Shown here: piece by piece, positions 1,510-15,854 of the stretch
How the letters are laid out: every line of letters starts with the position of its first letter
Numbering within the stretch: position 1 is the first letter of the stretch
NCBI GenBank assembly: GCA_927443345.1
Contig: CAKMKJ010000012.1
Location: 1-64,000, forward strand
Direction of reading: 5' to 3'
Origin: an uncultured Anaerolineaceae bacterium
GTDB lineage: Bacteria > Chloroflexota > Anaerolineae > Anaerolineales > Anaerolineaceae
DNA length: 64,000 nt
The notes under the pieces: model-generated
Told to the model about the DNA's origin: nothing
Seen by the model: only the letters and a program-made list of their open reading frames with translations
The model's database searches: none
Position numbers and translations under genes: made by a program

Positions 1510-1516
1510 ATCAGGG

Positions 1517-1588
1517 GTGGCTAATGGGGGTCGAACCCACAACCCTCGCATCCACAGTGCGATGCTCTGCCATTGAGCTATAGCCACC
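1517..1588 (-). tRNA. trnH: tRNA-His (anticodon GTG)
   Basis: The minus strand folds as a cloverleaf: acceptor GTGGCTA/TAGCCAC, D stem GCTC/GAGC, anticodon stem TCGCA/TGCGA around loop CTGTGGA (anticodon GTG), and T arm with loop TTCGACC. It has the histidine hallmark of an extra 5' G (G-1, position 1588) opposite discriminator C73 (position 1517). CCA is not encoded. The gene lies 33 bp downstream of hisS on the same strand, so the tRNA and its synthetase are probably co-transcribed. Confidence 0.95.
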
Positions 1589-1621
1589 ATGAGCGACAGG
1601 ATTTTATCACAGGCTGAAGGG

Positions 1622-3048: not shown

Positions 3049-3429
3049 ATGAATGTTAAAGACTTAATTACACTAATTGACGGTCATCTTTACAATCCAT
3101 CAGCGAATCTTGATCGTGAAGTCAAAGGCGGATGCGGAGCTGATTTAATGAGCGATGTTCTGGCTTCTATCCAACCTGAAGCAGTACTTTTGACCGGTTT
3201 ATGCAATCCCCAGGTCATTAGAACTTCGATGATGGCGGATGTGGCGGCAGTGATTATCGTTCGCGGGAAAACCCCTCCCAAAGAAACCATTGATCTGGCA
3301 TCCCAGGAAGAGTTAGCCTTGATCTCTTCACCTTTTGGCATGTTTGAACTTTGCGGCAGGCTGCATCGCGCCGGGTTGCCCAGCCTCGAACGTGCAGTCG
3401 GAGACGAACCCTGCTCTTGTGATGAATAA
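3049..3429 (+). CDS. DRTGG-domain protein
   Basis: Small protein of 126 residues with a DRTGG-like domain (GGCGADLMSDVLAS near the N-terminus, then LLTGLCNPQVI and SPFGMFELCGRLHRAGL). DRTGG domains occur in phosphotransacetylase and CBS/PHP-type regulatory proteins; their ligand is not established. An upstream in-frame ATG exists at 3028, but the ATG at 3049 has CAGG at an 8-base spacing and gives the usual DRTGG N-terminus, so I prefer it. It is the first of four genes read rightward in a cassette that commonly precedes multimeric hydrogenase genes. The inferred role is sensing or signalling, not catalysis. Confidence 0.75.
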   Translation: MNVKDLITLIDGHLYNPSANLDREVKGGCGADLMSDVLASIQPEAVLLTGLCNPQVIRTSMMADVAAVIIVRGKTPPKETIDLASQEELALISSPFGMFELCGRLHRAGLPSLERAVGDEPCSCDE

Positions 3430-3446
3430 GGCGTAATCGGAGTAAA

Positions 3447-4445
3447 ATGGGCGACATCTCTCGAATTCAAAAACGACCTGTTACAGATCAAGATGCAGAG
3501 AACATAACCCGCGTTGAAGAGCTTGCATATGAATTAAAAGTGGAAGCAGTCATGACCAAAGAACCATCGACTGTGACACCTGAAACCTCAATGCTAGAAA
3601 CGCTCAACCTTTTTCGCCAAATAAGAATATCAGGCGCTCCAGTTGTTAATAATCATGAATTACTTGGCATTATCAGTATTGAAGATCTAATTCGCAGTCT
3701 TCAAGAAAACGATTTATCCTCACCAGTGTCGAAATACATGAGTTCGACCATTTTAACGATTCACGGTAGTGATCCGGTCATTGAAGCTTTAAAGTTGTTT
3801 GTCAATTCACACAAAGGTCGTTTACCCGTACTTGACCAGGATAATCAACTTATAGGCATTATTACCAAAGGTGATATCACCAGCGGTATTCTCAAAGCCT
3901 TGCAAAAAGATTATCACGCCGAAGAAATCAAGCGATATCGCGCCAGTCATTTGTTTGAAGATATAAATTCAGATCGCTCCAGTTTGATCCTGCGCTACAA
4001 CATTAAACAAGGCGACTTCATCCACGGCGGATCAGCTTCTTCGGCCATCAAGTCAGCTTTGCTGCGATTAGGCGCAACCCCTCAAATGGCACGCCGCACC
4101 GGCATAGCCGTTTATGAAGCAGAAATGAATTTGATCATCCATTCAACCAACGGCGGCGTCATCCGCGTCGAGATTGAACCCCATCAAATATCGATCAATA
4201 TTTCTGATGACGGCCCCGGTATTGAAGATATAGAATTGGCAATGAGGCCCGGGTATTCCACGGCAACTGAAACCGTCCGCGAACTGGGGTTTGGCGCTGG
4301 CATGGGGCTGGTAAACATCAAACGCTGTGTAGATTCGATGCGCCTGGAATCTGTATTTGGCAAAGGCACTAATTTGCGATTGAAAATATTTCTTCAGAGT
4401 GAAGAAACAGTCGGTGAAGCATCCGGCTCAAATAAGGAGACATAA
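3447..4445 (+). CDS. CBS-pair and histidine-kinase-like ATPase (anti-sigma type) protein
   Basis: 332 residues with two CBS domains (about 33-90 and 95-150; the first begins at VMTKEPSTV) followed by a GHKL ATPase domain (about 195-325). The ATPase N-box is EAEMNLIIHS (224-233), the G1 box DDGPGI (254-259) and the G2 box GFGAGMGL (281-288). There is no histidine-phosphotransfer domain, so it resembles RsbW-type anti-sigma kinases more than a sensor kinase. CBS pairs usually bind adenine nucleotides, so an energy- or redox-responsive regulator is a fair inference. A GGAG lies upstream, and it is 17 bp from the preceding gene and directly followed by the next. Confidence 0.8.
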   Translation: MGDISRIQKRPVTDQDAENITRVEELAYELKVEAVMTKEPSTVTPETSMLETLNLFRQIRISGAPVVNNHELLGIISIEDLIRSLQENDLSSPVSKYMSSTILTIHGSDPVIEALKLFVNSHKGRLPVLDQDNQLIGIITKGDITSGILKALQKDYHAEEIKRYRASHLFEDINSDRSSLILRYNIKQGDFIHGGSASSAIKSALLRLGATPQMARRTGIAVYEAEMNLIIHSTNGGVIRVEIEPHQISINISDDGPGIEDIELAMRPGYSTATETVRELGFGAGMGLVNIKRCVDSMRLESVFGKGTNLRLKIFLQSEETVGEASGSNKET

Positions 4446-4787
4446 ATGAATTTACAAGAAATAATCACCAACCTGGATCTAAAAGTTCTGACAGACCTCA
4501 AGGATTTTTCCGCGATTGAACCCTCTTGCGGTTATTCTTCTGATTTATTAAGCTGCGTCATGGCCGGAGCACCACATAAATCCGTGTGGGTCACACTTCA
4601 GGCCCACTCCAACATAATTGCGGTTGCCACCTTGCTAGAGCTTTCTGCAATCGTCATCACAGAAGGGGCCATGCCTGAACCAGCAATGCTTGCCAAAGCA
4701 AATGAAGAAGGCGTAATTATCTTGAGCACTGAAAAACCTACTTTCAATGTGATTGGAAAACTTTGGGAAATGGGTTTTCATTGCTAG
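4446..4787 (+). CDS. second DRTGG-type small protein
   Basis: 113 residues, paralogous in layout to the gene at 3049: CGYSSDLLSCVMAG near the N-terminus, an alternating hydrophobic core, and a terminal KLWEMGFHC corresponding to the LCGRLHRAGL end of the first. The classic DRTGG residues are largely replaced, so it is a divergent member. AAGGAG lies six bases before the ATG, which directly abuts the stop of the CBS-ATPase gene; translational coupling is likely. The two DRTGG proteins flanking one ATPase suggest they act together. Function unknown. Confidence 0.65.
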   Translation: MNLQEIITNLDLKVLTDLKDFSAIEPSCGYSSDLLSCVMAGAPHKSVWVTLQAHSNIIAVATLLELSAIVITEGAMPEPAMLAKANEEGVIILSTEKPTFNVIGKLWEMGFHC

Positions 4788-4822
4788 GCCGCAAGATCTT
4801 TTAATTCTTATTCCTGGTTATT

Positions 4823-5563
4823 TTGATAAAACCTTTTAAATCTGATCTTCATGTACATACAGTGCTCTCCCCTTGTGCTGAAGTGGAGATGATTCCCCCA
4901 TTAATAGTTGAATATGCCCTCGATCTTGGTATTAACCTGATTGCCATTACAGACCATAATGCCTCAGCAAATATTGTGGCAGTTCAAAAGGCCGCCAGTA
5001 ATACCCCGCTGCACATCCTCCCCGGTATGGAGATTCAAACGCGCGAAGAAGTTCATTCACTGTGCCTGTTTGACACCCTTGATCAAATCATGCAGCTTCA
5101 GAAACTCGTCACCGAAACACTACCCCCTATTAAGAATGAAGCTGAGCATTTCGGAGAACAATTTGTGGTGGATGAAACTGGTGACTTTATTCGCCGTGAA
5201 GAACAACTGCTGTTGGTCAGTTCAAGTTTATCGCTTAACGATGCCTGGAAAGTTGTTAACGAACTGGGTGGATTGTTCATCCCCGCGCATGTGAACCGTA
5301 AAGCTTTTGGGTTGCTCGAAACCCTTGGATTGGTACCAACAGATATTCAGATTGAAGCACTGGAAATTTCTAAACACCTTAATCCCGCAGACGCTGTCAA
5401 ACAATTTCCTCAAATTAAGGGGTATCCGTTAATTCAGGATGGTGATGTACATCGTCTGGATGAATTTAATGGCAGAATGACTCTATTTCTTGAAAAACCA
5501 TCCATTGATGAAATCCGCATGGCAATTCATAGCAAAAACAATAGATTGATAGGATTTTCCTAA
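4823..5563 (+). CDS. PHP-domain metal-dependent phosphoesterase-like protein
   Basis: 246 residues of the PHP (polymerase and histidinol phosphatase) superfamily. Metal-binding motifs visible in order are SDLHVHTVLSPC (7-18), TDHNAS (43-48), GMEIQTREEVH (68-78), PAHVNR (about 154) and DGDVHR (about 206). The family hydrolyses phosphoesters using two or three metal ions; the substrate cannot be read here. The start is a TTG at 4823 with a poor ribosome-binding site. It is the last gene of the DRTGG/CBS-ATPase cassette, which links it to a signalling function, perhaps turnover of a phosphorylated second messenger (speculative). Confidence 0.8.
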   Translation: MIKPFKSDLHVHTVLSPCAEVEMIPPLIVEYALDLGINLIAITDHNASANIVAVQKAASNTPLHILPGMEIQTREEVHSLCLFDTLDQIMQLQKLVTETLPPIKNEAEHFGEQFVVDETGDFIRREEQLLLVSSSLSLNDAWKVVNELGGLFIPAHVNRKAFGLLETLGLVPTDIQIEALEISKHLNPADAVKQFPQIKGYPLIQDGDVHRLDEFNGRMTLFLEKPSIDEIRMAIHSKNNRLIGFS

Positions 5564-5787
5564 TTTTTTTATGAGAAAATCGAGTAGAATATTATTTCGG
5601 TGATACAAAACAATTTATTTTGAAACATGGTTAGCAATAGGTAGTGAATGAGTGAAGTCTGGATATCCAACAGCAGATATAATGACATTCAGTCATTGTT
5701 GCACGCAACTTGAACAAGTAAACTATAAAAGGCAATTAGTGTAAAAGCACACAATTTGTCTGATTATATAAGATTGGAGTCTTCTTA

Positions 5788-6303
5788 ATGTCGGCGACCA
5801 CTGCAACAGTACAAAAGAACAATCCTTTAACAGATCCAGTAAGGAAACAGTTAATTGATCAAATTGTCGATCAAAACAAAGATCGACCCGGTGCCATTAT
5901 GGTTGTTTTGAACGAGGTTCAATCTGCCATTGGCTTTATAACCACAGAAATGCAGGATTATATTGCTCACAGGCTTCAGGTGCCAGCCTCGCGCGTCCAC
6001 GGTGTCGTTTCTTTCTATTCCTTCTTTACAACGAATGCCCGCGGCACTCACACAGTCAAATTTTGTATGGGAACAGCCTGTTATGTAGGTGGAACACCAG
6101 CATTGATTGAAAAAACCAAGCAGATTCTTGGCATTGAACCCGGAAATACCACTCCAGACGGCAATATAACAGTCGAAATTTGCCGCTGTGTTGGTGCATG
6201 CTCACAGGCTCCTGTGATTTTGGTTGATGAAGACGTGATTGGAAGAGTAAAACCCAACAAAATGCCGCAAGTTCTCAAACCCATTCAGGAAATTGCCGAG
6301 TAA
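5788..6303 (+). CDS. NuoE/HydC-like [2Fe-2S] subunit, copy 1
   Basis: 171 residues of the 24-kDa NADH-dehydrogenase subunit family. A helical bundle (about 15-75) precedes a thioredoxin-like [2Fe-2S] domain with ligands C93-x4-C98 and C134-x3-C138, the family pattern. It normally pairs with a NuoF-type flavoprotein and passes electrons to or from FMN. It begins a run of hydrogenase/diaphorase genes. The 224-bp spacer before it shows no clear -35/-10 pair. The closest relatives expected are HydC of multimeric hydrogenases and HoxE of group 3d enzymes. Confidence 0.9.
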   Translation: MSATTATVQKNNPLTDPVRKQLIDQIVDQNKDRPGAIMVVLNEVQSAIGFITTEMQDYIAHRLQVPASRVHGVVSFYSFFTTNARGTHTVKFCMGTACYVGGTPALIEKTKQILGIEPGNTTPDGNITVEICRCVGACSQAPVILVDEDVIGRVKPNKMPQVLKPIQEIAE

Positions 6304-6306
6304 CCC

Positions 6307-6861
6307 TTGAGAGAGCTTTCACTTCACCTTTTAGATATCGCTGAGAACAGCATTTCGGCCAAGGCAAATGACATCATCATTGAAGTGATTGAAGATTTGC
6401 GAATTGATCTTTTACAACTGAGTGTTCATGATAACGGCTGCGGTATGCCACCTGAAATGGCTGCCCGGGTCATTGATCCCTTTGTAACCACGCGCACAAC
6501 CCGAAAAGTCGGTTTGGGAATTCCTTTACTCAAAGAAGCAGCAGAAATGTGTAATGGAAGCTTCGAATTGACCTCTGAAGTAGGTGTTGGAACAAAAATC
6601 GTGGTGAAATTTCAACACAGTCATATTGATCGAATGCCGCTGGGTGATATCACCACCACACTCCTTCACCTGTTGGTGGCAAACCCATCTGTACATTGGG
6701 TCTTCAAATATCGTTTCAATGATAATGAATTTTTGTTTGATGATGAACCTGTAAAAGCTGAAATACAAGATTTACCGTTATCAGAACCTTCAATTTTGAA
6801 TTGTTTACGTGAAATGCTCAAATCAGGCATTGATGGTGCCAGGGCACTCAACGTATCATAA
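6307..6861 (+). CDS. GHKL ATPase-domain protein of hydrogenase operons
   Basis: 184 residues starting at TTG 6307, three bases after the NuoE-like gene. The N-terminal 110 residues form a histidine-kinase-like ATPase domain: N-box LLDIAENSISA (8-18), G1 box HDNGCGM (41-47), and GLGIPLLKEAA (69-79). The remaining 70 residues have no recognised domain. There is no dimerisation/phosphotransfer helix. Such genes recur between HydC and the ferredoxin-like gene in multimeric hydrogenase operons, but their role is not established. Assembly, redox-dependent regulation or signalling with the upstream CBS-ATPase protein are possibilities. Confidence 0.8.
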   Translation: MRELSLHLLDIAENSISAKANDIIIEVIEDLRIDLLQLSVHDNGCGMPPEMAARVIDPFVTTRTTRKVGLGIPLLKEAAEMCNGSFELTSEVGVGTKIVVKFQHSHIDRMPLGDITTTLLHLLVANPSVHWVFKYRFNDNEFLFDDEPVKAEIQDLPLSEPSILNCLREMLKSGIDGARALNVS

Positions 6862-6890: not shown

Positions 6891-7259
6891 ATGTCAACTA
6901 TTAAAAGCCTTGAAGACTTAAAGAATGCGCGTGAAGAAGCTTTAAAAAAACGCGAACTGAAAGCAACCTCGGGTGCGGTACAAGTCATCGTTGGTATGGG
7001 CACATGCGGCATTGCTGCTGGTGCACGTGATACGATGAAATCAATCCTCGACACCATTGAAAAAGACTCGATCAATGGCGTCATCGTGACTCAAACAGGC
7101 TGCATCGGTTTATGTGAAAAAGAACCAATCGTTCAGGTTGTAATCGGTGAAGCAGCTAAAGTTACTTATGGAAAAGTAACTCCGGAAGTTGCAAAAACGA
7201 TCTTATTAGAGCACGTCGGTAATGGCAAAGTTGTTTCAGACCACGTCTTAAACATTTAA
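6891..7259 (+). CDS. thioredoxin-like (2Fe-2S) ferredoxin-domain protein
   Basis: 122 residues with the signature GMGTCGIAAGA (36-46) and TQTGCIGLCEKEP (68-79), typical of the small thioredoxin-fold ferredoxins found beside HydB. Three cysteines at the expected places are visible (C39, C71, C75). The fourth canonical ligand after CGIA is not a cysteine, so whether it binds a full cluster is uncertain. An AGGAG precedes the ATG. It sits between the ATPase gene and the flavoprotein gene and is probably an electron-transfer or assembly subunit. Confidence 0.8.
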   Translation: MSTIKSLEDLKNAREEALKKRELKATSGAVQVIVGMGTCGIAAGARDTMKSILDTIEKDSINGVIVTQTGCIGLCEKEPIVQVVIGEAAKVTYGKVTPEVAKTILLEHVGNGKVVSDHVLNI

Positions 7260-7304: not shown

Positions 7305-9086
7305 ATGGCGATTTTTCGTTCTCATGTTTTAGTTTGTGTGGATCCTGAATGCCTTAAAAAAGGCGCCCATGATATTATGGATGCGCTTCAGGACGAATTA
7401 GTGACAAAAGGATTGATTGACGAAATCCAGGTATTGGAAACCTCCAGAATTGGCGGTTGTGACAATGGACCTGAGATTATGGTTTACCCGGAAGGCGTAC
7501 ATTATGTCGGTATTTCACCAGATGATGTTCCTTACCTGGTGGAAGAACATTTTCTCAAAGGGCGCACCGCTGAAAAATTCGTCCTGAAAGAAAAAACATT
7601 TATTGATGAAGAGTTGAGCGCGCCTACCTCCAAAGAAGTTCGCATTGTCTTAAAGAATTGCGGCATTATCGATCCTGGGAATATTGAAGAATACCTGGCC
7701 GAAGGCGGCTACGAAGGACTTGGCAAAGTATTAACCAGCTACACTCCTGAAGAAACGATTGATATTGTGCTTCGTTCGGGTTTAGGCGGCCGCGGAGGCG
7801 CAGGCTTCCCAACTGGTAAAAAATGGCAATTCTGCCGTGCCACGCAGGAATGGCCAAAATATATGATCTGCAACGCGGATGAAGGTGATCCTGGTGCGTT
7901 TATGAACCGCCGTGTGCTTGAAGGCGATCCTCATGCGGTTATCGAAGGTATGATCATCGGCGCTTATGCTGTCGGATCAAGCCAGGGATACATCTACTGT
8001 CGGGCTGAATACCCCCTTGCAATCAAGACCCTGAATATCGCCATTGACCAGGCCCACGCGCTTGGCTTATTGGGCAAAGACATTCTTGGATCCGGTTTCG
8101 ACTTTGACCTTGAAGTGCGCATGGGTGCCGGTGCATTCGTCTGTGGTGAAGAAACAGCTTTGATGGCGTCCATCGAAGGTAAACGCGGTGAACCCCGCCC
8201 AAGACCTCCCTTCCCGGCGGTCAAGGGCTTGTTTGGCAAACCCTCCAACGTCAACAATGTTGAAACCTATGCCAATGTTCCCCAGATTATCATCAATGGA
8301 CCTGAATGGTATGCCTCTTATGGCACCGAAAAATCCAAAGGAACCAAAACCTTTGCTTTGGCCGGCGATGTTCAACATACCGGTTTAATTGAAGTTCCTT
8401 TTGGCTTAACACTGCGTGAAATCATTTTTGACGTAGGCGGCGGTATCAAAGACGGCAAAGCATTTAAAGCCATCCAAACCGGCGGCCCAATGGGCGGTTG
8501 TTTGCCGGCTGAATTCCTTGACCTGCCCGTGGATTACCAGGAACTCGCTAAAGCCGGTTCCATCATGGGATCAGGCGGTCTTGTGGTAATGGACGAAGAC
8601 ACCTGCATGGTGGATATCGCCCGCTTTTTCATGGACTTTGTTCAGGATGAATCCTGTGGCAAATGCACCCCCTGTCGTGTTGGTACACGCAGAATTCTTG
8701 AAATTCTCGAAGGCATATGTGAAGGCCGTGGCAAAGAAAGTGATCTTGACACGCTTGAAATGCTCTGCGAACAAATTCAAGAAGACAGCTTGTGCGGTCT
8801 CGGACAAGGTGCTCCAAACCCGGTGGTCAGCACACTGAAGCATTTCCGTTCAGAATATGAAGCACACATCAAAGAAAAACGCTGCCCGGCTAAAGTTTGT
8901 AAACCATTAATCCGCTACGATATCGTTGATGGTCCATGCACCGGATGTACAGTTTGCGCGCGCAACTGCCCGGTCAATTGCATCACCGGTGAACGCAGAC
9001 AAACCCATGTAATCGATCCTGATGTTTGTGTGCGCTGCGGTATTTGTATGCAAGTTTGCAACTTTAATGCAATTGTCATCAATTAG
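7305..9086 (+). CDS. NuoF/HydB-like flavoprotein with C-terminal 2x[4Fe-4S] ferredoxin domain, copy 1
   Basis: 593 residues. Order: N-terminal thioredoxin-like domain (C11, C16 and C52 visible, one ligand short of four); NADH/FMN-binding domain with GGRGGAGFPTGKKW (161-174) and EGKRGEPRPRPPFP; SLBB-like segment; [4Fe-4S] site ESCGKCTPC (about 447-455) with the distal CGLGQ; then a two-cluster ferredoxin tail (CTGCTVCARNCP near 545 and CVRCGICMQVC near 575). The ferredoxin tail is characteristic of HydB of electron-bifurcating hydrogenases and not of respiratory NuoF. The gene should oxidise or reduce NAD(P)(H) and may exchange electrons with ferredoxin. Confidence 0.92.
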   Translation: MAIFRSHVLVCVDPECLKKGAHDIMDALQDELVTKGLIDEIQVLETSRIGGCDNGPEIMVYPEGVHYVGISPDDVPYLVEEHFLKGRTAEKFVLKEKTFIDEELSAPTSKEVRIVLKNCGIIDPGNIEEYLAEGGYEGLGKVLTSYTPEETIDIVLRSGLGGRGGAGFPTGKKWQFCRATQEWPKYMICNADEGDPGAFMNRRVLEGDPHAVIEGMIIGAYAVGSSQGYIYCRAEYPLAIKTLNIAIDQAHALGLLGKDILGSGFDFDLEVRMGAGAFVCGEETALMASIEGKRGEPRPRPPFPAVKGLFGKPSNVNNVETYANVPQIIINGPEWYASYGTEKSKGTKTFALAGDVQHTGLIEVPFGLTLREIIFDVGGGIKDGKAFKAIQTGGPMGGCLPAEFLDLPVDYQELAKAGSIMGSGGLVVMDEDTCMVDIARFFMDFVQDESCGKCTPCRVGTRRILEILEGICEGRGKESDLDTLEMLCEQIQEDSLCGLGQGAPNPVVSTLKHFRSEYEAHIKEKRCPAKVCKPLIRYDIVDGPCTGCTVCARNCPVNCITGERRQTHVIDPDVCVRCGICMQVCNFNAIVIN

Positions 9087-9155
9087 TTTTGTTGAAGCGG
9101 AGTACGACGTTCTTCCTTCAACTTGATTAAACCATCAGAGCCGAGGAGGAGAAAC

Positions 9156-9635
9156 ATGACAATTGAAACGAAAGACAGTAAGGTTGTGCTGGAAGCAGTG
9201 CAATCTGCTGTCACGCGTTATGGCGCGTCGCAAGATGAATTGATACCGATTTTGAACGACGTCAACCGTGAAATTGGTTATCTGCCCGGTGAAGCACTGG
9301 ATGAACTCAGCCGTTTGCTGAAAGTTCCGAAAAGCCAGCTTTTCTCTGTGGCAAGTTTTTATCGCATGCTTTCAACCAAGCCGCGTGGAAAACATGTGCT
9401 TCAGTTTTGCGAAAGTGCCCCTTGTCATGTAGCTGGCGGCCGTGAAGTATGGCTGGCAGTTAAAGAGGTTCTGAAAATCGAAGAGAACGAAACCACGCCT
9501 GATGGTAAATGGACTTTAATTACAACCAGTTGTCTTGGTGTTTGCGGCGTAGGCCCTGTAATGATGATTGATGACGACGTAATCGGAAACGTGGACCCCG
9601 CTCAGGTCCCGGACATCCTCGCCAAGTATCAATAG
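9156..9635 (+). CDS. NuoE/HydC-like [2Fe-2S] subunit, copy 2
   Basis: 159 residues from the ATG at 9156, which has GAGGAGG five bases upstream; a TTG 33 bases earlier lacks such a site. The fold and ligands repeat those of the gene at 5788: CESAPC (C-x4-C) and CLGVC (C-x3-C). Sequence differs clearly from copy 1, so this is an old duplication or separate acquisition, not a recent copy. It is followed after 12 bp by a second NuoF-like gene, so the two form a second diaphorase pair within the same operon. Confidence 0.9.
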   Translation: MTIETKDSKVVLEAVQSAVTRYGASQDELIPILNDVNREIGYLPGEALDELSRLLKVPKSQLFSVASFYRMLSTKPRGKHVLQFCESAPCHVAGGREVWLAVKEVLKIEENETTPDGKWTLITTSCLGVCGVGPVMMIDDDVIGNVDPAQVPDILAKYQ

Positions 9636-9647
9636 AAGGAGGCTGAC

Positions 9648-11282
9648 ATGAAAGCGATTCGTTCCATGGTTTTAGTCTCCAGTGATGCCCAGAGCATTGC
9701 AAATGGCGCTAAAGAGGTTTATCAAGCGCTTCAACGCGAAATCGCCGCTTTTGGTCTTGAAAATGAAATTTCCTTGACCATGGTTGGCGATGTTGGCCGA
9801 CACGATGCCTCACCACTTGTGATCATTTACCCTGAAGCTACTATTTACGGCCCGGTAAAACAAGAGGATGTTCATTACATCGTGGAAGAACATCTTTACA
9901 AAGGGCGTATCGCAGCATCCATGCAAGCTCCGGTGCGTGAACTTTCAGGCAAAATCGCCTGGTTGTCAGCGCGTAAGGGCACGTTACCCGCAGAACAGCG
10001 TATTGTCCTTGAAAGAGCGGGTGTCATCGACCCATATTCCATTGATGATTACATCATTCATGATGGATATCAGGCGCTGGCCAAAGCATTGACCGATATG
10101 ACGCCTGATCAGATATTTGACATTTTAGAAGCCTCCGGTTTACGCGGACGCGGAGGTGCGGGCTTTCCAACTGGCACCAAATGGCGGTTCGTTAACCGTG
10201 CGAAGAACGACAAGAAGTATGTGGTTTGCAATGCTGATGAAAGCGAACCTGGCACGTTCAAAGATCGTTTGATCCTTGAAGGCGATCCTCACTCTATCAT
10301 CGAAGCCATGGCCATCGCGGCATACGCGGTGGGTGCAGATGAAGGTTATTTCTACATCCGCGGCGAATATGTGCTGGCACAAGAACGCGTTCGCAAAGCC
10401 ATTGAACAAGCCAAAGAAATGGGCTTTTTGGGCAAGAACATCTTCGGCACTGATTTTAACCTGGAGCTGCATGTGCATGCAGGCGCAGGTGCTTATATCT
10501 GCGGTGAAGAAACTGCCCTGATTGAATCCATCGAAGGCAAACGCGGAGAACCTCGTCCACGTCCGCCTTATCCGACCACCAATGGCTTGTGGGGCAAACC
10601 TACCCTGGTAAATAATGTCGAAACCATGGCTAATGTTGCACCTATTTTGCGAAACGGTGCTGATTGGTATCGCAGCTTCGGACCAAAAAACAGCCCGGGC
10701 ACCAAGGTTTACACCATCCTGGGAAACCTGAATGTTACCGGATTGATCGAAGTGCCCATGGGCATTACGCTGCGAGAAGTTATTGCAATTTATGGCAAAG
10801 GAATGAAGAACGACAAGACCTTTAAACTGGCTCAAACCGGTGGTTCATCGGGATCAATCGTCCCTGCGATTTTGCAAGATACCCCCATGGACTTTGACTC
10901 TTTCAGCAATGCAGGTGTGGCATTAGGCTCAGGCGCATTATTAATTTGCGATGAAGACACCTGTGTGGTTGACCTCGCGAAAACGTTGTTGAATTTTTTC
11001 CGCAAAGAGTCATGTGGTAAATGCAACCCTTGCCGCATCGGCAATCAAAGAGCTTTTGAAATATTAACCAACATTTCTGAAGGAACAGGCACATTGAATG
11101 ACCTAACGGACCTGATGAATTTAAGCGATAACCTTTACCAGTTATCCAATTGCGGTCTTGGTCAGACCGCGGGTGCACCGATTCGTGATATTTTGAATCA
11201 CTATCGCGCAGAGGTAGAAGCCCATATTCGATTGAAAGTATGCCCAACGGGTATCTGCCCGATGAGCGGTAAGAAGATTTAG
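9648..11282 (+). CDS. NuoF/HoxF-like NADH-binding flavoprotein, copy 2, lacking the N-terminal cluster
   Basis: 544 residues with the NADH/FMN motifs GLRGRGGAGFPTGTKW and EGKRGEPRPRPPYP and the N3-type cluster site ESCGKCNPC plus distal CGLGQ. It differs from copy 1 in two ways. The N-terminal thioredoxin-like domain has kept its shape (about residues 1-90) but has no cysteine, so it cannot hold a [2Fe-2S] cluster. The C-terminus stops shortly after VCPTGICPMSG without a ferredoxin domain. GGAGG precedes the ATG. The start of the [NiFe]-linked gene block lies 32 bp downstream, which suggests this copy is the dedicated NADH module of the hydrogenase. Confidence 0.92.
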   Translation: MKAIRSMVLVSSDAQSIANGAKEVYQALQREIAAFGLENEISLTMVGDVGRHDASPLVIIYPEATIYGPVKQEDVHYIVEEHLYKGRIAASMQAPVRELSGKIAWLSARKGTLPAEQRIVLERAGVIDPYSIDDYIIHDGYQALAKALTDMTPDQIFDILEASGLRGRGGAGFPTGTKWRFVNRAKNDKKYVVCNADESEPGTFKDRLILEGDPHSIIEAMAIAAYAVGADEGYFYIRGEYVLAQERVRKAIEQAKEMGFLGKNIFGTDFNLELHVHAGAGAYICGEETALIESIEGKRGEPRPRPPYPTTNGLWGKPTLVNNVETMANVAPILRNGADWYRSFGPKNSPGTKVYTILGNLNVTGLIEVPMGITLREVIAIYGKGMKNDKTFKLAQTGGSSGSIVPAILQDTPMDFDSFSNAGVALGSGALLICDEDTCVVDLAKTLLNFFRKESCGKCNPCRIGNQRAFEILTNISEGTGTLNDLTDLMNLSDNLYQLSNCGLGQTAGAPIRDILNHYRAEVEAHIRLKVCPTGICPMSGKKI

Positions 11283-11314
11283 AATTTTTGCATTTTGACA
11301 GGAGCATAATAATA

Positions 11315-13264
11315 ATGGCGACGATTACAATTAACGGCAATAAACTGGAAGTCCCCGATGGGATGACTGTTTTACGAGCTGCTCAGGCCAACGGAATTGA
11401 AATTCCCACCCTGTGTGATCACCCCCATCTGACCCCTTACGGCGGCTGCCGTTTGTGCCTGGTCGAGGTGGAAGGTGCCCGCACCTTACAGCCGTCTTGC
11501 ACCTTGCCCGTGAGCAACAACATGGTGGTCAAGACCGATACAAAGAAGGTGCTTGATGCACGTAAATTTGTTCTTACCCTGATCTTTAGCGAACGCAACC
11601 ATTTCTGCCCGTATTGCCAGGTCAGCGGAGGAGATTGCGAACTGCAGAACGCAGCCTACAACGAGGGAATGACCCATTGGCCGCTCTCTCCAAACTACAC
11701 AACCTTCCCCATGGATGCATCACATCCCCACATCATCATGGAAGCCAACCGCTGCATCCTCTGCCGCCGCTGCGTCCGTGCTTGTGGAGATTTGGTCGGT
11801 AATTACACTTTGGGTTTCGAAGAACGCGGTGCCAACAGCATCCTCGTTGCGGATACCGGTGTTCCCCTGGGCGAAAGTACTTGTATCTCTTGTGGTGCTT
11901 GTGTGCAAGTTTGCCCCACTGGCGCTTTGATTGACCGCTGGAGCGCTTATCGCGGCCGCGAAACACAGGTTGATATTACCAATACGGTCTGTGTTGCCTG
12001 CTCTGTTGGCTGTAAAGTCAACGTACTGACTCGCAACAACAGCCTCGTCCGCATCGAAGGCGATTGGGAAGGTGCAGTCAATGAAGGGCTGCTATGCGAA
12101 CTCGGTCGTTTTGATCCTATGAAAGTGGATTGCGAACGCATCGCCACACCTATGATCCGCAAGAACGGCGCCCTTAAAGCCGCCACCTGGGATGAAGCGC
12201 TAAGCACTATTGCATCCCAATTGAAACCCCTTTCTGGAAAATCCGCTGATGGTGTGGCTGCTTTAATCTCTACCCGCCAGCCCATCGAAGCCATTTCTCT
12301 ATTCAAAGAACTCTTTGCTGACCAATTGGGCAGCGGTATGGTAACCACAACAGAAGAAGGCGAATTTACTGCTGATAGTGCGGTATATGCTGATACGGTT
12401 AATAAAGCTTTCGAAACCGATCTTAAAGCCTTACAGACTGCCGGAGCAGTCATGGTTGTGGATGCAGATCTCGTGAAAGATCACCAGGTTGCTGGTTTCT
12501 TCATCAAACGAAAACTTTCTGCCGGTACCAACCTGCTGGTTGTTGATAAAAAAGAAAATGGTTTGAATCCATTTGCCAACAAAGTTCTCAAAGCAGGCAA
12601 AGGATCAAATGCAGATATTTTCAAGGGCTTAATCGCCGCAGTCGTCAAATTGGGACTTGCCAAAGGCAAGACTGCCATCAAAGCCACCGATTTAGATGGT
12701 TTTGCTGCTGCCACCGGTTTGAAAACAGATGATTACCTTGATGCCGCTTTCGTTCTTACCTCCGCTGAAAAACCCGTTTTCGTTTATGAGAACGGATCAG
12801 ACCTGGCCGTGTTAAAAGAATTAGTTGATGTTGTAGAAGGCCAATTACTCAGCCTCAAAGGTGGATCGAACAGCCTGGCTGCCTCACAACTACACCTTGA
12901 CAAAACCTTCAAGATCAATGGTCATAAAGCAGCTTTCTTTGCGATTGGCGATGGCGAGGCTTCACAGAAATCCGTCAAGGAATTTGAAAAAGCACCCTTC
13001 AAAGTTGTTTTGGCCACTTATGCATCTGCTCTGACCGGTGTTGCTGACGTCGTTTTGCCCTCAACCAATTGGTTGGAACAAGAAGGCCACTATATTAACC
13101 TTGAAGGTAAAACACAATGGGCAAAAATAGCCATTACCCCGGCTGAAGAATCTTGGACCACGGTCCAGACGTTGAACGCTTTAGCAGAAAAACTGAGCGT
13201 CAAATTAACCGCTGATTGGACGAAAGAGATGCATGAACGTGTCTCCGTCGTTGAAATCTCATAA
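11315..13264 (+). CDS. NuoG/HoxU-like multi-cluster electron-transfer subunit
   Basis: 649 residues from ATG 11315 (AGGAG upstream; an earlier TTG at 11288 lacks a site). Cluster motifs in order: an N-terminal [2Fe-2S] ferredoxin domain (LCDHP, GGCRLC, SC), a His/Cys [4Fe-4S] site HFCPYCQVSGGDC, two bacterial ferredoxin clusters (CILCRRCVRAC and CISCGACVQVCP), and a Fe4S4-Mop-type site CVACSVGC with a distal LLCELGRFD. The C-terminal 400 residues have a molybdopterin-oxidoreductase-like fold, probably without cofactor as in NuoG. HoxU of simple NAD-hydrogenases is only about 240 residues, so this long form resembles NuoG/HydA-type subunits. Confidence 0.88.
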   Translation: MATITINGNKLEVPDGMTVLRAAQANGIEIPTLCDHPHLTPYGGCRLCLVEVEGARTLQPSCTLPVSNNMVVKTDTKKVLDARKFVLTLIFSERNHFCPYCQVSGGDCELQNAAYNEGMTHWPLSPNYTTFPMDASHPHIIMEANRCILCRRCVRACGDLVGNYTLGFEERGANSILVADTGVPLGESTCISCGACVQVCPTGALIDRWSAYRGRETQVDITNTVCVACSVGCKVNVLTRNNSLVRIEGDWEGAVNEGLLCELGRFDPMKVDCERIATPMIRKNGALKAATWDEALSTIASQLKPLSGKSADGVAALISTRQPIEAISLFKELFADQLGSGMVTTTEEGEFTADSAVYADTVNKAFETDLKALQTAGAVMVVDADLVKDHQVAGFFIKRKLSAGTNLLVVDKKENGLNPFANKVLKAGKGSNADIFKGLIAAVVKLGLAKGKTAIKATDLDGFAAATGLKTDDYLDAAFVLTSAEKPVFVYENGSDLAVLKELVDVVEGQLLSLKGGSNSLAASQLHLDKTFKINGHKAAFFAIGDGEASQKSVKEFEKAPFKVVLATYASALTGVADVVLPSTNWLEQEGHYINLEGKTQWAKIAITPAEESWTTVQTLNALAEKLSVKLTADWTKEMHERVSVVEIS

Positions 13265-13285: not shown

Positions 13286-13828
13286 ATGGCTAAACCAAAA
13301 GTCTCATCAGATTGGCTGGCAGGCTGCGCTGGCTGCCACATGTCTTTGTTGGATATGGACGAACGCATTGTGGATGTCATCAACCTGGTCGATCTGCGTT
13401 CCACCCCGATTACAGATCTCAAACACCCGGATGAAAGTGGTGTGGATGTAGGCATTCTTGAAGGCGGCATTAACAACTCATATAACGAAGAAGTCGCAGT
13501 CAATATGCGCTCTCACTGCAAAATTCTTGTCGCTTTTGGCGATTGTGCCGTGTTTGGTGGTGTTCCTGCTATGCGCAATTTCTTCACCCTTGAAGAAACA
13601 CTGCGCCGCGCATATATCGAAACTGAAAGCACCGATGAAAGTGGACATATTCCCAACGATCCTGAATTGGCAGTACCAATGAAGGTTCATGCAATTCAAG
13701 ATTTTGTTAAGGTGGATGTGTTCCTTCCAGGTTGCCCCCCGAGTGCAGATGCAATTTTCCATGTCTTGAGTGAACTCGGTCAGGGTAGAGTCCCTGAACT
13801 CAAGGGCGACACCCTGCACTGGAATTAG
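13286..13828 (+). CDS. hoxY: [NiFe] hydrogenase small subunit (HoxY-like, group 3 type)
   Basis: 180 residues. Ligands for the proximal [4Fe-4S] cluster are visible: WLAGCAGCHMSLLD (C14, C17), GDCAVFGG and LPGCPPSADAI. The short length, with no twin-arginine signal and no medial/distal clusters, is typical of cytosolic NAD-linked (group 3) enzymes. It transfers electrons between the [NiFe] site of the large subunit and the NuoG-like subunit encoded just upstream. GGAG lies seven bases before the ATG, and 15 bp separate it from the large-subunit gene. Confidence 0.93.
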   Translation: MAKPKVSSDWLAGCAGCHMSLLDMDERIVDVINLVDLRSTPITDLKHPDESGVDVGILEGGINNSYNEEVAVNMRSHCKILVAFGDCAVFGGVPAMRNFFTLEETLRRAYIETESTDESGHIPNDPELAVPMKVHAIQDFVKVDVFLPGCPPSADAIFHVLSELGQGRVPELKGDTLHWN

Positions 13829-13843
13829 ATGAGGAGTCATTAA

Positions 13844-15274
13844 ATGGTAGCTCAAAAAATAACGATTGAACCCGTAACCCGGATCGAAGGCCATGCCAAA
13901 GTCACTATTCGTATGAATGCAGGCGGCAAAGTTGATCATGCCTATTTGCATGTTAACGAATTCCGCGGTTTTGAAAAATTCTGTGAAGGTCGCATGGTCT
14001 TTGAAATGCCCCTCATCACACCTCGTATTTGCGGCATCTGTCCTGTCAGCCACCATTTGGCTGCGGCCAAAGCTGGCGATGATGTCTTGGGTGCTCCACC
14101 TCCGCGCCCTGCCAACCTTTTGCGCGAATTAATGCACATGGGTCAGATCGTTCAAAGTCACGGCATGCATTTCTTCGAACTGGCCGGACCCGATTTATTG
14201 CTTGGATTTGATTCTGATCCTGCCCTTCGCAACGTTGTAGGGCTGCTTCAGGCCAACCCTGATCTCACAGTTAAAGCCGTTCAACTTCGCAAATGGGGAC
14301 AGGAAATCATCCGAATTCTTGGTGGACGCCGTATTCACCCCAACTTCGCCGTCCCAGGTGGTGTCAACAAAGCCCTCACCCAAGACGAACGTGATACCAT
14401 CCTTGCGGGATATGATGATGCTTTAGCTACAACCATGGCAGCCATCGGCATCATGCAAGGCTGGGCTGAAGCTAATATGGAAGATATTAATAAATTTGGT
14501 GTCTTCTCTACTGGTTATCTCGGTCTAGTAAAAGACGCTAATACACTTGAGTTGTATGATGGCGATATTCGGTTGACCAGCTCAACCGGCAAGGAACTCG
14601 AAAAGTTTGATCCGCGCAATTACCTGGATTACATTTCTGAGCATGTCGAAAACTGGTCTTACTTGAAATTCCCGTATTACAAGAAACTCGGTTATCCCGG
14701 TGGTGTCTACCGTGTTGGTCCTCTTGGACGATTGAATAATTCAGATCGAATGGCCACTCCGCTTGCGGATGCAGAACTCAAGAAATTCAAACAATTAAAC
14801 GGCGGAAAACCCGTTGAGAACACCTTGCATTATCACACAGCGCGGTTGATTGAGACAGTTTACGCGATTGAGAATGTAAAAGTCTTGCTGGAAGATGCTG
14901 ATATCCTGAGCAACGACATTCTCAATACCTGCCGCGACCCGAAACCCTCCGGTGTGGGTGTGATTGAAGCCCCTCGAGGCACCCTCATCCATCACTATTG
15001 GATGAACCAGAACCAACAGATTGAAAGAGTCAACTTGATCGTCTCAACCGGTCACAACAACTGGGCCATGAGTGAAGCTGTTGACAGCGTTGCCAAAACC
15101 TATATACCTGATGCCGAACATGTTACTGAAGGCATGTTGAACCGGGTTGAAGCCGCCATCCGTGCCCATGATCCCTGCCTCTCTTGCTCAACACATGCAG
15201 TGGGTCAAATGCCCATTATCCTGGAAGTTCGAGATTCATCAGACCAATTGGTCAAGACCATCACCAGGAATTAG
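13844..15274 (+). CDS. hoxH: [NiFe] hydrogenase large subunit (HoxH-like, group 3d type)
   Basis: 476 residues. The four [NiFe] cysteines are present: RICGIC (C63, C66) and DPCLSC (C445, C448). After DPCLSCSTH a 25-residue tail (AVGQMP to the end) matches the C-terminal extension removed by a maturation endopeptidase after nickel insertion; the endopeptidase gene lies 75 bp downstream. The pattern matches the cytosolic NAD-reducing type and not uptake or energy-converting enzymes. A strong hairpin terminator directly follows the stop. Confidence 0.95.
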
Positions 15275-15349: not shown

Positions 15350-15835
15350 TTGAAAACACTACTCTATGGCTATGGAAATCCAGACCGACAAGACGACGGC
15401 GTTGCCTGGCATGTGCTGCATGAAATCATGAAGCATTACGGTTTGCCTGTGTCTGACGATTTGGATGTTGACTTCCACGATGAACAACGTCAAATGGATT
15501 ACGATTTCCAGCTTCAACTCACACCTGAAATCGCAGATGATCTGGATGTTTATGACAGGGTCTGTTTTATTGATGCACACACGGGGGCGGTTCCCGAAGA
15601 AATCCATTTGGAGAAAGTAACTGCTAATTTTCAAAAATCGCCCCTCACACATCATCTTACGGCTGCCTCTTTGCTTTCGATTGCAGACACTCTGCATCAC
15701 AAAGTACCAGAAACAATCCTCGTTTCTGTCAGAGGCTACGAATTTGGTTTTGCACAATCTTTGTCTGCTGCCACATCTTCCTTGACTAGACAAGCTGCTG
15801 ATATTATTATCAAATGGCTTGAAGAAGAACATTGA
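15350..15835 (+). CDS. hydrogenase maturation endopeptidase (HoxW-like)
   Basis: 161 residues with the HycI/HoxW-family nickel-sensing signature GYGNPDRQDDG (7-17) and the conserved FIDAHTG segment. It cleaves the C-terminal peptide from the large subunit after nickel insertion. The start is a TTG at 15350; no ATG fits, since the GYGNP motif follows within seven residues. It sits just after the large-subunit gene and its terminator and 19 bp before the transporter gene. Confidence 0.88.
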   Translation: MKTLLYGYGNPDRQDDGVAWHVLHEIMKHYGLPVSDDLDVDFHDEQRQMDYDFQLQLTPEIADDLDVYDRVCFIDAHTGAVPEEIHLEKVTANFQKSPLTHHLTAASLLSIADTLHHKVPETILVSVRGYEFGFAQSLSAATSSLTRQAADIIIKWLEEEH

Positions 15836-15854
15836 AGAAAATCTGGGGATACTA

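What the first reader, a model, noticed from the sequence alone, without database searches (positions are those of the whole stretch)
3049..6861. Sensor cassette (two DRTGG proteins, CBS-GHKL ATPase, PHP phosphoesterase, second GHKL ATPase) joined to the hydrogenase
Two ATPases of the anti-sigma/histidine-kinase fold with no phosphotransfer domain, nucleotide-binding CBS domains, two paralogous DRTGG proteins and a phosphoesterase lie directly ahead of the hydrogenase genes, and one ATPase is inside them. Such sets recur near multimeric hydrogenases, but no function is established that I know of. They could form a nucleotide/redox-responsive signalling system that controls hydrogenase expression or assembly.
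Basis: partly seen in the sequence, partly recalled or inferred. Interest (0 to 1): 0.7.

Follow-up and report, generated by a model that had tools for sequence, protein, structure and literature searches.

The report
Signalling cassette for electron-bifurcating enzymes
Next to a hydrogen-handling enzyme of an anaerobic bacterium sits a set of signalling genes that recurs across many bacterial phyla beside one kind of energy-saving redox enzyme, and that probably tells this enzyme, through swappable sensors, when to work.

Summary
In detail: DRTGG1, CBS-GHKL, DRTGG2, PHP and a second GHKL ATPase are real, intact and conserved. The partner is not hydrogenase as such but the electron-bifurcating BfuBC (HydB/HydC) core: the cassette adjoins NiFe-, FeFe-, formate-dehydrogenase-, HdrA-, Stn-like and complex-I-type enzymes. 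The set splits into a signalling core (DRTGG1, kinase, DRTGG2, PHP) and an enzyme side (second GHKL plus a HydD-like protein, window 6891-7259). Where the core lies away from Bfu, the Bfu operon elsewhere still carries HydD in 17 of 19 genomes checked; the second GHKL sits there in 10 of 13 Spirochaetota and with the core in 6 of 6 Nitrospirota. Kinase input is modular: CBS in 119 of 170 distinct kinases; a HydS-like sensory [FeFe]-hydrogenase beside 16 of the 51 without CBS and none with CBS. Natural fusions join HydS to kinase, HydS to DRTGG2, kinase to DRTGG2, receiver to kinase and receiver to BfuC. The kinase domain is closest to SpoIIAB; the second GHKL folds like MutL. I propose a serine-kinase/DRTGG switch acting on the enzyme; phosphorylation is inferred, not shown. 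Counter-evidence: six Spirochaetota genomes keep a fused pair without full BfuB.

The parts
3049..3429 (+). DRTGG1: stand-alone DRTGG/HPrK-N fold protein; candidate phospho-acceptor Ser at the N-terminus of a helix (S42 in the numbering from ATG 3028)
   Evidence: Pfam DRTGG 1.9e-06; AF2 pLDDT 91.1, helix 41-47; AF1212 DRTGG Z 16.8; Ser aligned in 149 of 149 intact copies, window included
3447..4445 (+). CBS-CBS-GHKL protein, SpoIIAB-like putative serine kinase with CBS sensor domains
   Evidence: Pfam CBS 3.7e-28, HATPase_c and HATPase_c_2; SpoIIAB best solved relative E 1.6e-11; E224, N228, D254, G256, G258, G283, G285, G287 invariant in 32 of 32
4446..4787 (+). DRTGG2: second, diverged DRTGG protein; fused to the kinase or to a HydS-like sensor in other genomes
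   Evidence: Pfam 2.3e-06; Ser and the Asp three before it aligned in 141 of 141 copies; fusions
4823..5563 (+). PHP phosphoesterase with intact putative metal-ligand residues
   Evidence: Pfam PHP 1.3e-07; H10, H12, D44, H45, E70, H156, D208, H210 invariant in 36 of 36, H78 in at least 90%; nearest solved relative EndoQ
5788..6303 (+). BfuC/HydC1, NuoE-like [2Fe-2S] subunit
   Evidence: Pfam 2Fe-2S_thioredx 1.5e-44
6307..6861 (+). Second GHKL protein (probable counterpart of 'HisK' of the Acetomicrobium mobile operon): GHL/MutL-like ATPase domain, no HisKA or receiver domain found
   Evidence: AF2 pLDDT 90.7; MutL Z 13.2, 148 residues, rmsd 3.3; D10, N14, D42, G44, G46 invariant in 58 of 58
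6891..7259 (+). HydD-like thioredoxin-fold protein with three Cys in all
   Evidence: Pfam 2Fe-2S_thioredx 3.1e-04, below cut-off; sequence; tracks the cassette: 86 of 89 against 0 of 22; trans test
7305..9086 (+). BfuB/HydB1, FMN/NADH subunit with C-terminal 4Fe-4S domains
   Evidence: Pfam Complex1_51K 5.1e-45, NADH_4Fe-4S, Fer4
9123..9635 (+). Second HydC-like subunit
   Evidence: Pfam 1.7e-45
9648..11282 (+). Second NuoF/HydB-like subunit; no C-terminal ferredoxin extension by its length and its match to HydB1 (residues 3-533)
   Evidence: NCBIfam nuoF_fam 2.5e-154
11288..13264 (+). BfuA/HydA-like, NuoG-like subunit; no [FeFe] H-cluster domain among its 21 Pfam matches
   Evidence: Pfam Fer2_4, Molybdopterin; NCBIfam NuoG 8.3e-97, below cut-off
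13286..13828 (+). [NiFe] hydrogenase small subunit
   Evidence: NCBIfam VhuG 4.4e-39, below cut-off
13844..15274 (+). [NiFe] hydrogenase large subunit with RICGIC and DPCLSC motifs
   Evidence: NCBIfam VhuA 1.4e-133, below cut-off; motifs read, their meaning recalled
15350..15835 (+). Putative hydrogenase maturation protease
   Evidence: by position and resemblance in sequence; family not tested here

Best explanation
The five genes plus the HydD-like gene are a signalling module for electron-bifurcating Bfu enzymes. Shown here: a mobile core (DRTGG1, SpoIIAB-like GHKL kinase, DRTGG2, PHP) and an enzyme-side part (MutL-like GHKL ATPase, HydD) that go together with HydD-bearing BfuBC enzymes, mostly even when unlinked, and a kinase with swappable inputs (CBS in this window; HydS-like sensory [FeFe]-hydrogenase or receiver domain elsewhere). 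Inferred: adenylates on the CBS domains (or H2 on HydS) set the kinase; the kinase phosphorylates the invariant Ser at the head of a helix in the DRTGG proteins; PHP removes the phosphate; the phosphorylation state of the DRTGG proteins controls the MutL-like ATPase and HydD, which dock on BfuBC and gate electron bifurcation, that is the activity or assembly state of the enzyme and not mainly its transcription.
For: Partner is Bfu: 35 of 42 genome-contig loci and 27 of 30 further loci (L122-L161) with at least 6.5 kb on both sides of the kinase contain BfuB; same-strand block with BfuB in 85 of 129 loci. Several Bfu types, not only hydrogenases. HydD: 86 of 89 cassette+BfuB loci against 0 of 22 BfuB loci without cassette. 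Trans test: in 19 genomes with core genes unlinked from Bfu, the Bfu locus fetched carries HydD in 17; GHKL2 lies in it in 10 of 13 Spirochaetota whose core stretch lacks it and in 0 of 6 Nitrospirota whose core has it. Inputs: CBS 119 kinases with HydS 0; no CBS 51 with HydS 16. Fusions: KIN-HydS (L199), HydS-DRTGG2 (L158, L161), KIN-DRTGG2 (7 loci), REC-KIN and REC-BfuC (L213). Kinase: SpoIIAB E 1.6e-11, NCBIfam spIIAB for both CBS and CBS-less forms, below its cut-off. DRTGG1 directly upstream of the kinase in 112 of 123. Ser aligned in 149 of 149 intact DRTGG1 and 141 of 141 DRTGG2.
Against: No phosphorylation is shown; an invariant Ser at a helix start may bind a ligand. Six Spirochaetota genomes keep DRTGG1 plus a kinase-DRTGG2 fusion without a full BfuB; orphan DRTGG1-kinase pairs also lie beside purL/purQ-like or other genes. 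G550 and G527 have core genes but a Bfu locus without HydD and GHKL2; G466 has HydD without GHKL2 there, and its core stretch is cut short. In Nitrospirota a histidine kinase or a sigma-54-type response regulator lies beside the core (L203, L205, L213), and TamHydS is reported beside an AraC-type regulator (PMC8163306); both would allow a transcriptional output. HydD is not part of the purified A. mobile holoenzyme (PMC9304861). HydS against CBS is confounded with phylum. Most full-span BfuB matches in the own phylum have no cassette.
Confidence: 0.53

Rival explanations
1. Maturation/assembly set: the MutL-like ATPase and HydD are an ATP-driven clamp chaperone for the BfuBC core, and the DRTGG/kinase/PHP genes serve its cycle.
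For: GHL fold of the second GHKL; its position inside the Bfu operon next to HydD in the window and in 10 Spirochaetota; Feng et al. 2022 assume 'maturation and/or regulation' for HydD, HydP and HisK (passage read).
Against: 20 BfuB loci fetched from the same phylum, including one in the own genome, have no DRTGG, PHP, GHKL2 or HydD hit above threshold, so BfuBC does not need it in general; sensor inputs (CBS, HydS, receiver) point to signalling.
Confidence: 0.2
2. Transcriptional partner switch: the CBS-GHKL is an anti-sigma factor or works through a response regulator to control bfu transcription.
For: SpoIIAB similarity; two-component genes beside the core in Nitrospirota; published suggestion of transcriptional control by upstream kinases and phosphatases in Clostridium thermocellum (PMC3492117, passages); AraC-type regulator beside TamHydS (PMC8163306, passage).
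Against: Of 58 clusters of extra same-strand neighbours within 1.5 kb in L042-L161, only 2 representatives carry a receiver domain, and no sigma factor or DNA-binding family is among the 25 families shown of 99 (Nitrospirota loci came later and are not in this count); receiver fused to BfuC itself.
Confidence: 0.16
3. Metabolite-binding regulators without phosphorylation: the DRTGG and CBS proteins bind nucleotides and the GHKL proteins only bind ATP.
For: CBS and DRTGG domains form the regulatory region of a pyrophosphatase (3l2b/3l31; its nucleotide response is recalled).
Against: N-box Glu and Asn and both glycine boxes of the kinase invariant in 32 of 32; PHP ligands intact, which suggests a phosphorylated substrate.
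Confidence: 0.15

Closest known systems
NiFe-HydABCSL (NiFe-Bfu) operon of Acetomicrobium mobile (Feng et al. 2022, PMC8880783; Schut et al. 2022, PMC9304861; passages read, of the second also outline and abstract)
   Same: HydABC plus [NiFe] S and L subunits with extra genes HisK, HydD and HydP; two non-subunit genes lie between Anamo_1678 and Anamo_1681, as GHKL2 and HydD lie between hydC1 and hydB1 here. That these are HisK and HydD in this order is my inference; the figure was not available.
   Different: Those papers give no function, and kinase, DRTGG, CBS and PHP do not occur in the text of PMC9304861; the window has an extra HydC/HydB pair and the upstream core.
SpoIIAA-SpoIIAB / RsbS-RsbT partner-switching kinases (recalled except for the SpoIIAB match)
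   Same: SpoIIAB-like kinase encoded directly after a small partner with an invariant Ser at a helix start.
   Different: Partner is a DRTGG fold, not STAS; phosphatase candidate is PHP, not PP2C; no sigma factor seen in the cassette.
Group D sensory [FeFe]-hydrogenase TamHydS (PMC8163306 and PMC13104023, passages)
   Same: [quoted passage not shown] HydS-like proteins here share the 4Fe-4S/H-domain/C-terminal FeS layout.
   Different: None seen in the window's operon; here HydS-like proteins are tied by fusion to a SpoIIAB-like kinase and to DRTGG2.
CBS-DRTGG regulatory region of Clostridium perfringens pyrophosphatase (3l2b, 3l31) and AF1212 (2ioj)
   Same: DRTGG fold (Z 14.4, 14.3 and 16.8).
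   Different: The cassette proteins carry D-x-x-S at a place where the HMM alignment shows other residues in AF1212 (weak register).
MutL N-terminal ATPase
   Same: Fold of residues 1-170 of the second GHKL (Z 13.2).
   Different: Chain too short for a transducer domain; Asp10 where MutL has its catalytic Glu (recalled position).

Membership tests
SpoIIAB-type serine kinase/anti-sigma (CBS-GHKL) | SpoIIAB-like domain nearest among solved structures | tested here: met
   1til E 1.6e-11 ahead of CheA 1.3e-05; HATPase_c_2 4.3e-08, though HATPase_c scores 5e-10
SpoIIAB-type serine kinase/anti-sigma (CBS-GHKL) | Passes the curated NCBIfam spIIAB equivalog cut-off (135 bits) | tested here: not met
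   59.8 bits: works like, is not SpoIIAB itself
SpoIIAB-type serine kinase/anti-sigma (CBS-GHKL) | Phosphorylates a Ser of an encoded partner | not testable with these tools
   only an invariant Ser in the neighbouring DRTGG proteins
Histidine kinase (second GHKL) | HisKA/DHp domain with phospho-His | tested here: not met
   only HATPase families match; 184 aa
GHL ATPase of MutL type (second GHKL) | GHL ATPase fold over the whole domain | tested here: met
   MutL Z 13.2, 148 of 184 residues, model 1-170
GHL ATPase of MutL type (second GHKL) | Transducer (S5-fold) domain | tested here: inconclusive
   chain ends after the ATPase domain; matches stop at MutL residue about 217
PHP phosphoesterase | Metal-ligand His/Asp/Glu residues | tested here: met
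   the assignment of these residues as ligands is recalled
DRTGG domain | Pfam PF07085 gathering score and DRTGG fold | tested here: met
   28.1 and 27.8 against 25.2 bits; fold for DRTGG1 only
Bfu (electron-bifurcating BfuABC) | BfuB with NuoF core plus C-terminal 4Fe-4S pair, BfuC, NuoG-like BfuA | tested here: met
Bfu (electron-bifurcating BfuABC) | Electron bifurcation activity | not testable with these tools
   needs purified enzyme
Sensory group D [FeFe]-hydrogenase (HydS-like genes in relatives) | 4Fe-4S ferredoxin domain, Fe_hyd_lg_C and C-terminal FeS domain, no PAS | tested here: met
   L161, L198, L158; L134 has Fe_hyd_lg_C and FeS at 1e-6, its N-terminal Fer4 not listed there; the other HydS-like proteins were assigned by an HMM built here
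Sensory group D [FeFe]-hydrogenase (HydS-like genes in relatives) | HydDB group assignment | not tested
   HydDB not available; NCBIfam nearest is group B1, below cut-off

The most novel reading that the evidence does not exclude
A new class of partner switch dedicated to electron bifurcation: SpoIIAB-like kinases with swappable metabolic sensors (CBS for adenylates, HydS for H2, receiver for phosphorelay) phosphorylate DRTGG proteins, PHP resets them, and a MutL-like ATPase clamp with HydD gates the BfuBC core, so that the cell's energy charge or H2 level directly switches the bifurcating enzyme. It would be the missing signal path of PAS-less sensory [FeFe]-hydrogenases.
Probability: 0.3. 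Interest if true: 0.88.

Novelty: new variant of a known kind. Interest (0 to 1): 0.74.

Why it matters
Bifurcating enzymes set much of the energy budget of acetogens, syntrophs and fermenters, and I found no account of how their activity is controlled. PMC8163306 (passage) asks how PAS-less sensory [FeFe]-hydrogenases pass on their signal; the KIN-HydS and HydS-DRTGG2 fusions found here make that question directly testable. The trans co-occurrence of core, GHKL2 and HydD gives a specific prediction of who talks to whom.

Tried and rejected
Considered and rejected: [FeFe] hydrogenase as the constant partner (the motif search marked 3 of the 89 loci, two of them, L041 and L108, apparently the same contig); CBS as a core part (CBS-less kinases); the Asp three before the DRTGG1 Ser as invariant (10 of 149 intact DRTGG1 copies have Gly or Ser there; the looser pattern count gave 15); an RNA element in the first 20 kb (only tRNA-His); promoter and terminator scan (12 and 6 matches, shuffles 9.7 and 4.2 on average).

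Led nowhere: paper searches for the combination of domains with hydrogenase (DRTGG with hydrogenase gave one unrelated paper, HATPase with bifurcating and hydrogenase gave one paper that, in the passages read, places such a domain in group C1 [FeFe]-hydrogenases). The mixed DRTGG profile first hit designed Pizza proteins with repeats, taken as artefact. I had no handle for Bacillota genomes, so that phylum was not sampled. Papers: 13 were opened; of PMC9304861 I saw the outline with abstract and passages, of the other 12 passages only; others are seen as search listings or recalled.

Limits: the 80 genome-contig loci are the best-scoring of at least 544, so biased to near relatives; regions fetched by place were chosen by me, not at random; related genomes are not independent; gene labels in scripts rest on HMMs built from these loci with fixed score thresholds. 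The BfuB label: of 111 loci that have it at over 150 bits, 103 have a frame of 600 bits or more; the other eight are seven short frames (L049, L053, L057, L070, L101, L119, L136) and one NuoF-type (L219). Phylum names of the samples are inferred from the record titles of the loci used as centres. In one search, loci before L033, L162-L181 and L227 were left out, and 176 loci were reduced to 170 by identical kinase ends.
Full report
What is there. Around them lie hisS (- strand, 1622-2890) and tRNA-His upstream, and hydC1, the second GHKL, a HydD-like gene, hydB1, hydC2, hydB2, a NuoG-like hydA and [NiFe] small and large subunits downstream. The large subunit shows RICGIC and DPCLSC. This looks like a NiFe-Bfu operon. 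Feng et al. 2022 (PMC8880783, passages) name HydD, HydP and HisK as extra genes in the Acetomicrobium mobile operon, only 'assumed' to serve maturation and/or regulation; two non-subunit genes lie between Anamo_1678 and 1681 there, and I take GHKL2 and the HydD-like gene as their counterparts (inference).

Conservation. Among 201 genomes of the phylum 10 have a full-length CBS-GHKL homologue, separated from the next match by more than 60 orders of magnitude in E-value. Nine were fetched: eight lie next to BfuB/NuoF-type genes and L039 next to [NiFe]-hydrogenase genes only; the tenth is the window. Key residues: kinase E224, N228, D254, G256, G258, G283, G285, G287 invariant in 32 of 32; PHP H10, H12, D44, H45, E70, H156, D208, H210 in 36 of 36; second GHKL D10, N14, D42, G44, G46 in 58 of 58.

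Partner. With at least 6.5 kb on both sides of the kinase, 35 of 42 genome-contig loci and 27 of 30 loci of the L122-L161 set contain BfuB; counting BfuC or [NiFe] large subunit too, 39 of 42 and 28 of 30 (of all loci, 57 of 80 and 30 of 40, many cut by contig ends). In 85 of 129 loci BfuB lies in the same same-strand block. The BfuA position varies: NuoG-like with [NiFe] subunits; [FeFe] HydA (L041/L108, L070); and, by Pfam domains, formate-dehydrogenase-like (L076), proteins with Fer2_4 and pyridine-nucleotide-disulphide oxidoreductase domains that I read as HdrA-like (L079, L100, L111), and a Stn-like protein with dihydropyrimidine-dehydrogenase, Pyr_redox and molybdopterin domains (L115). 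In L134 a NuoN-like antiporter gene lies beside the core, with five similar neighbours in other loci. Schut et al. 2022 (PMC9304861; outline, abstract and passages) define this enzyme superfamily as Bfu. The reverse does not hold: by hand count 48 matches span residues 20 or less to 585 or more of BfuB, and 6 of them lie in cassette loci; 20 BfuB places fetched from the same phylum, among them one in the own genome, have no DRTGG, PHP, GHKL2 or HydD above threshold (the own-genome place, L162, has a CBS protein that scores with the kinase model).

Two sub-modules. HydD is present in 86 of 89 loci with cassette and BfuB and in 0 of 22 with BfuB but no cassette (two of the 22, L088 and L089, are short contigs with DRTGG1 and kinase; the other 20 are those). 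The second GHKL marks the enzyme side: BfuB lies in the stretch for 93 of 115 kinases with it and 9 of 55 without it. In the Spirochaetota and Nitrospirota loci that I fetched, the core often lies away from Bfu (BfuB in 15 of the 39 stretches scored; L199 was scored separately and also has BfuB). Of 31 genomes searched, 29 hold a BfuB-like match at E <= 1e-170.

Trans test. I fetched 20 Bfu loci of 19 such genomes: the best-scoring one of each genome, save G693, where I took the second by a hair, plus a second one of G522. HydD is in 17 of the 20, that is in the locus taken for 17 of 19 genomes; G527 and G550 lack it, as does the second Bfu of G522. GHKL2: among the 13 Spirochaetota genomes the core stretch lacks it in all, and it stands between HydC and HydD in the Bfu locus, the window's order, in 10; it is missing there in G466 (core stretch cut by the contig end), G527 (fused pair) and G550. 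Among the 6 Nitrospirota genomes the core stretch carries it in 6 and the Bfu locus taken in 0. In three of these 13 genomes the core itself is partial (L190 kinase alone, L193 without DRTGG hits above threshold, L198 without DRTGG2 and PHP). Other Bfu copies of these genomes were not looked at. This trans pattern is the strongest evidence that core, GHKL2 and HydD work together.

Inputs. Of 170 distinct kinases 119 carry CBS and 51 do not; a HydS-like protein lies within 2.5 kb, or is fused, in 16 of the 51 and 0 of the 119 (Fisher 6e-10; not corrected for kinship, and CBS-less kinases come from few phyla). HydS-like proteins scanned with Pfam have Fe_hyd_lg_C and the C-terminal FeS domain, with ferredoxin domains listed in four of five. 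In 11 of 13 scored HydS-like proteins at least two of three short patterns for the H-domain cysteines are found, in L147 and L161 one. One kinase has a receiver domain instead (L213).

Fusions. Kinase-DRTGG2 in one frame: L196, L200, L222-L226 by HMM (Pfam DRTGG in L222 is 2.1e-04, below cut-off, and is not listed for L196 at 1e-5). Kinase-HydS: L199, in the order DRTGG1, fusion, DRTGG2, PHP, GHKL2, HydC, HydD, HydB, HydA. HydS-DRTGG2: L158, L161 (Pfam DRTGG 2.8e-06 in L158). Receiver-kinase and receiver-BfuC in one operon: L213 (Pfam lists the receiver but no HATPase at 1e-5 for this kinase, whose domain rests on the HMM). I take these as evidence that sensor, kinase and DRTGG2 act together and that the enzyme itself can be a signal target.

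Nature of the two GHKL proteins. The kinase domain's best solved relative is SpoIIAB (1.6e-11), then CheA and histidine kinases (1.3e-05 and worse); both CBS and CBS-less forms hit the NCBIfam spIIAB model at 59.8 and 52.9 bits, below its cut-off of 135. The second GHKL hits histidine-kinase models by sequence but its AF2 model (pLDDT 90.7) matches MutL over residues 1-170 (Z 13.2, rmsd 3.3, 148 aligned); the 50 rows listed are GHL proteins (MutL, PMS2, MLH1, topoisomerase VI-B, gyrase B, ParE and kin; rows within 1 Z are tied), while in the Foldseek list histidine kinases align over about 83-108 columns. The name HisK may therefore mislead.

DRTGG proteins. DRTGG1 is modelled at pLDDT 91.1 with S42 at the start of helix 41-47; its fold is that of AF1212 (Z 16.8) and the pyrophosphatase DRTGG region. 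In an alignment of all copies at hand with the window's, the Ser is kept in 149 of 149 intact DRTGG1 (one further copy is cut at its start) and 141 of 141 DRTGG2; the Asp three before it in 139 of 149 and 141 of 141. The HMM alignment with AF1212 does not show this Ser there (the register is weak). DRTGG1 lies directly before the kinase in 112 of 123 loci.

Mechanism. Shown: composition, co-occurrence in cis and trans, modular inputs, fusions, folds. Inferred: Ser phosphorylation of DRTGG by the kinase, reversal by PHP, read-out by GHKL2/HydD on BfuBC. Against a general maturation role: BfuBC without these genes in the same phylum and genome. Against a mainly transcriptional role: no recurrent regulator among extra neighbours of L042-L161 (2 of 58 cluster representatives with receiver domain; 25 of 99 families shown). 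For it: in Nitrospirota a HAMP-HisKA kinase (L203, L213) or a sigma-54-type regulator (L203, L205) lies beside the core, and PMC8163306 reports an AraC-type regulator beside TamHydS. From print: PMC3492117 (passages) notes upstream kinases and phosphatases at bifurcating hydrogenases, suggests transcriptional control, and cites (second-hand) a fourfold fall of NADH-hydrogenase activity under high H2 in Thermoanaerobacter tengcongensis; PMC8163306 also reports a histidine kinase-like ATPase beside TamHydS and asks how the signal is passed on. PMC12003927 and PMC7325909 (passages) mention spoIIAB or spoIIE annotations near HydABC regions. PMC6288185 (passages) reports HydD as a subunit of the Acetobacterium woodii enzyme; in A. 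mobile it is not part of the holoenzyme (PMC9304861).

Exceptions. Six Spirochaetota genomes (G506, G538, G591, G488, G513, G578) keep DRTGG1 plus a kinase-DRTGG2 fusion and have no full-length BfuB, only shorter NuoF-type matches (four) or none at 1e-60 (G538, G578); mgtE precedes the pair in the two checked by Pfam (L196, L222). G558 (cassette beside a [NiFe] hydrogenase with a NuoF-type gene, L219) also lacks it. Orphan DRTGG1-kinase pairs lie beside purL/purQ-like genes (L091, L093, L132), a peptide ABC transporter (L106) or elsewhere (L123, L124, L130) (gene names by eye except where Pfam was run).

Verdict. A real, conserved signalling-type module for bifurcating enzymes, unexplained in the papers searched; parts known, combination and wiring new. 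Novelty: new variant of a known kind. After the recount the confidence was lowered a little (0.55 to 0.53), because the trans test stands at 17 of 19 and 10 of 13, not 17 of 17 and 10 of 10.

Noticed in passing
L213:9841-10716: A receiver domain fused to the BfuC/HydC subunit, by eye nearly identical to the receiver fused to the kinase in the same operon.
   Followed up: partly
L196:10904-12283 and L222:3049-4467: mgtE (CBS-bearing Mg transporter) beside the fused kinase-DRTGG2 pair in two Spirochaetota genomes without full BfuB.
   Followed up: partly
window 9123-11282: A second HydC/HydB-like pair in the hydrogenase operon; the second HydB is shorter and matches HydB1 only up to residue 533. 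Its role in the complex is unclear.
   Followed up: no
window 1514-2890: tRNA-His and hisS lie divergently upstream of the cassette; the hisS neighbour is kept in many Chloroflexota loci.
   Followed up: no
window 15819-16691: Putative formate/nitrite-type transporter gene after the hydrogenase (by eye); homologues lie near or inside some relatives' operons (L033, L151).
   Followed up: no
L162 (contig C15 of the own genome): A second BfuB locus of the own genome without the cassette but with a CBS-domain protein a few genes upstream.
   Followed up: no
L194:7760-9844, L195: A methyl-accepting chemotaxis-type protein gene between kinase and DRTGG2 (Pfam in L194; a similar-sized frame in L195), perhaps another input.
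   Followed up: partly
L151:4562-7804, L149: Methylmalonyl-CoA mutase fusion after the cassette in several loci of the Desulfobacterota sample.
   Followed up: no
L186:2678-3136, L191: RseC/MucC-like gene directly before DRTGG1 (Pfam in L186, by eye in L191); rnf-like genes near the cassette in L112, L116, L131 (by eye).
   Followed up: partly
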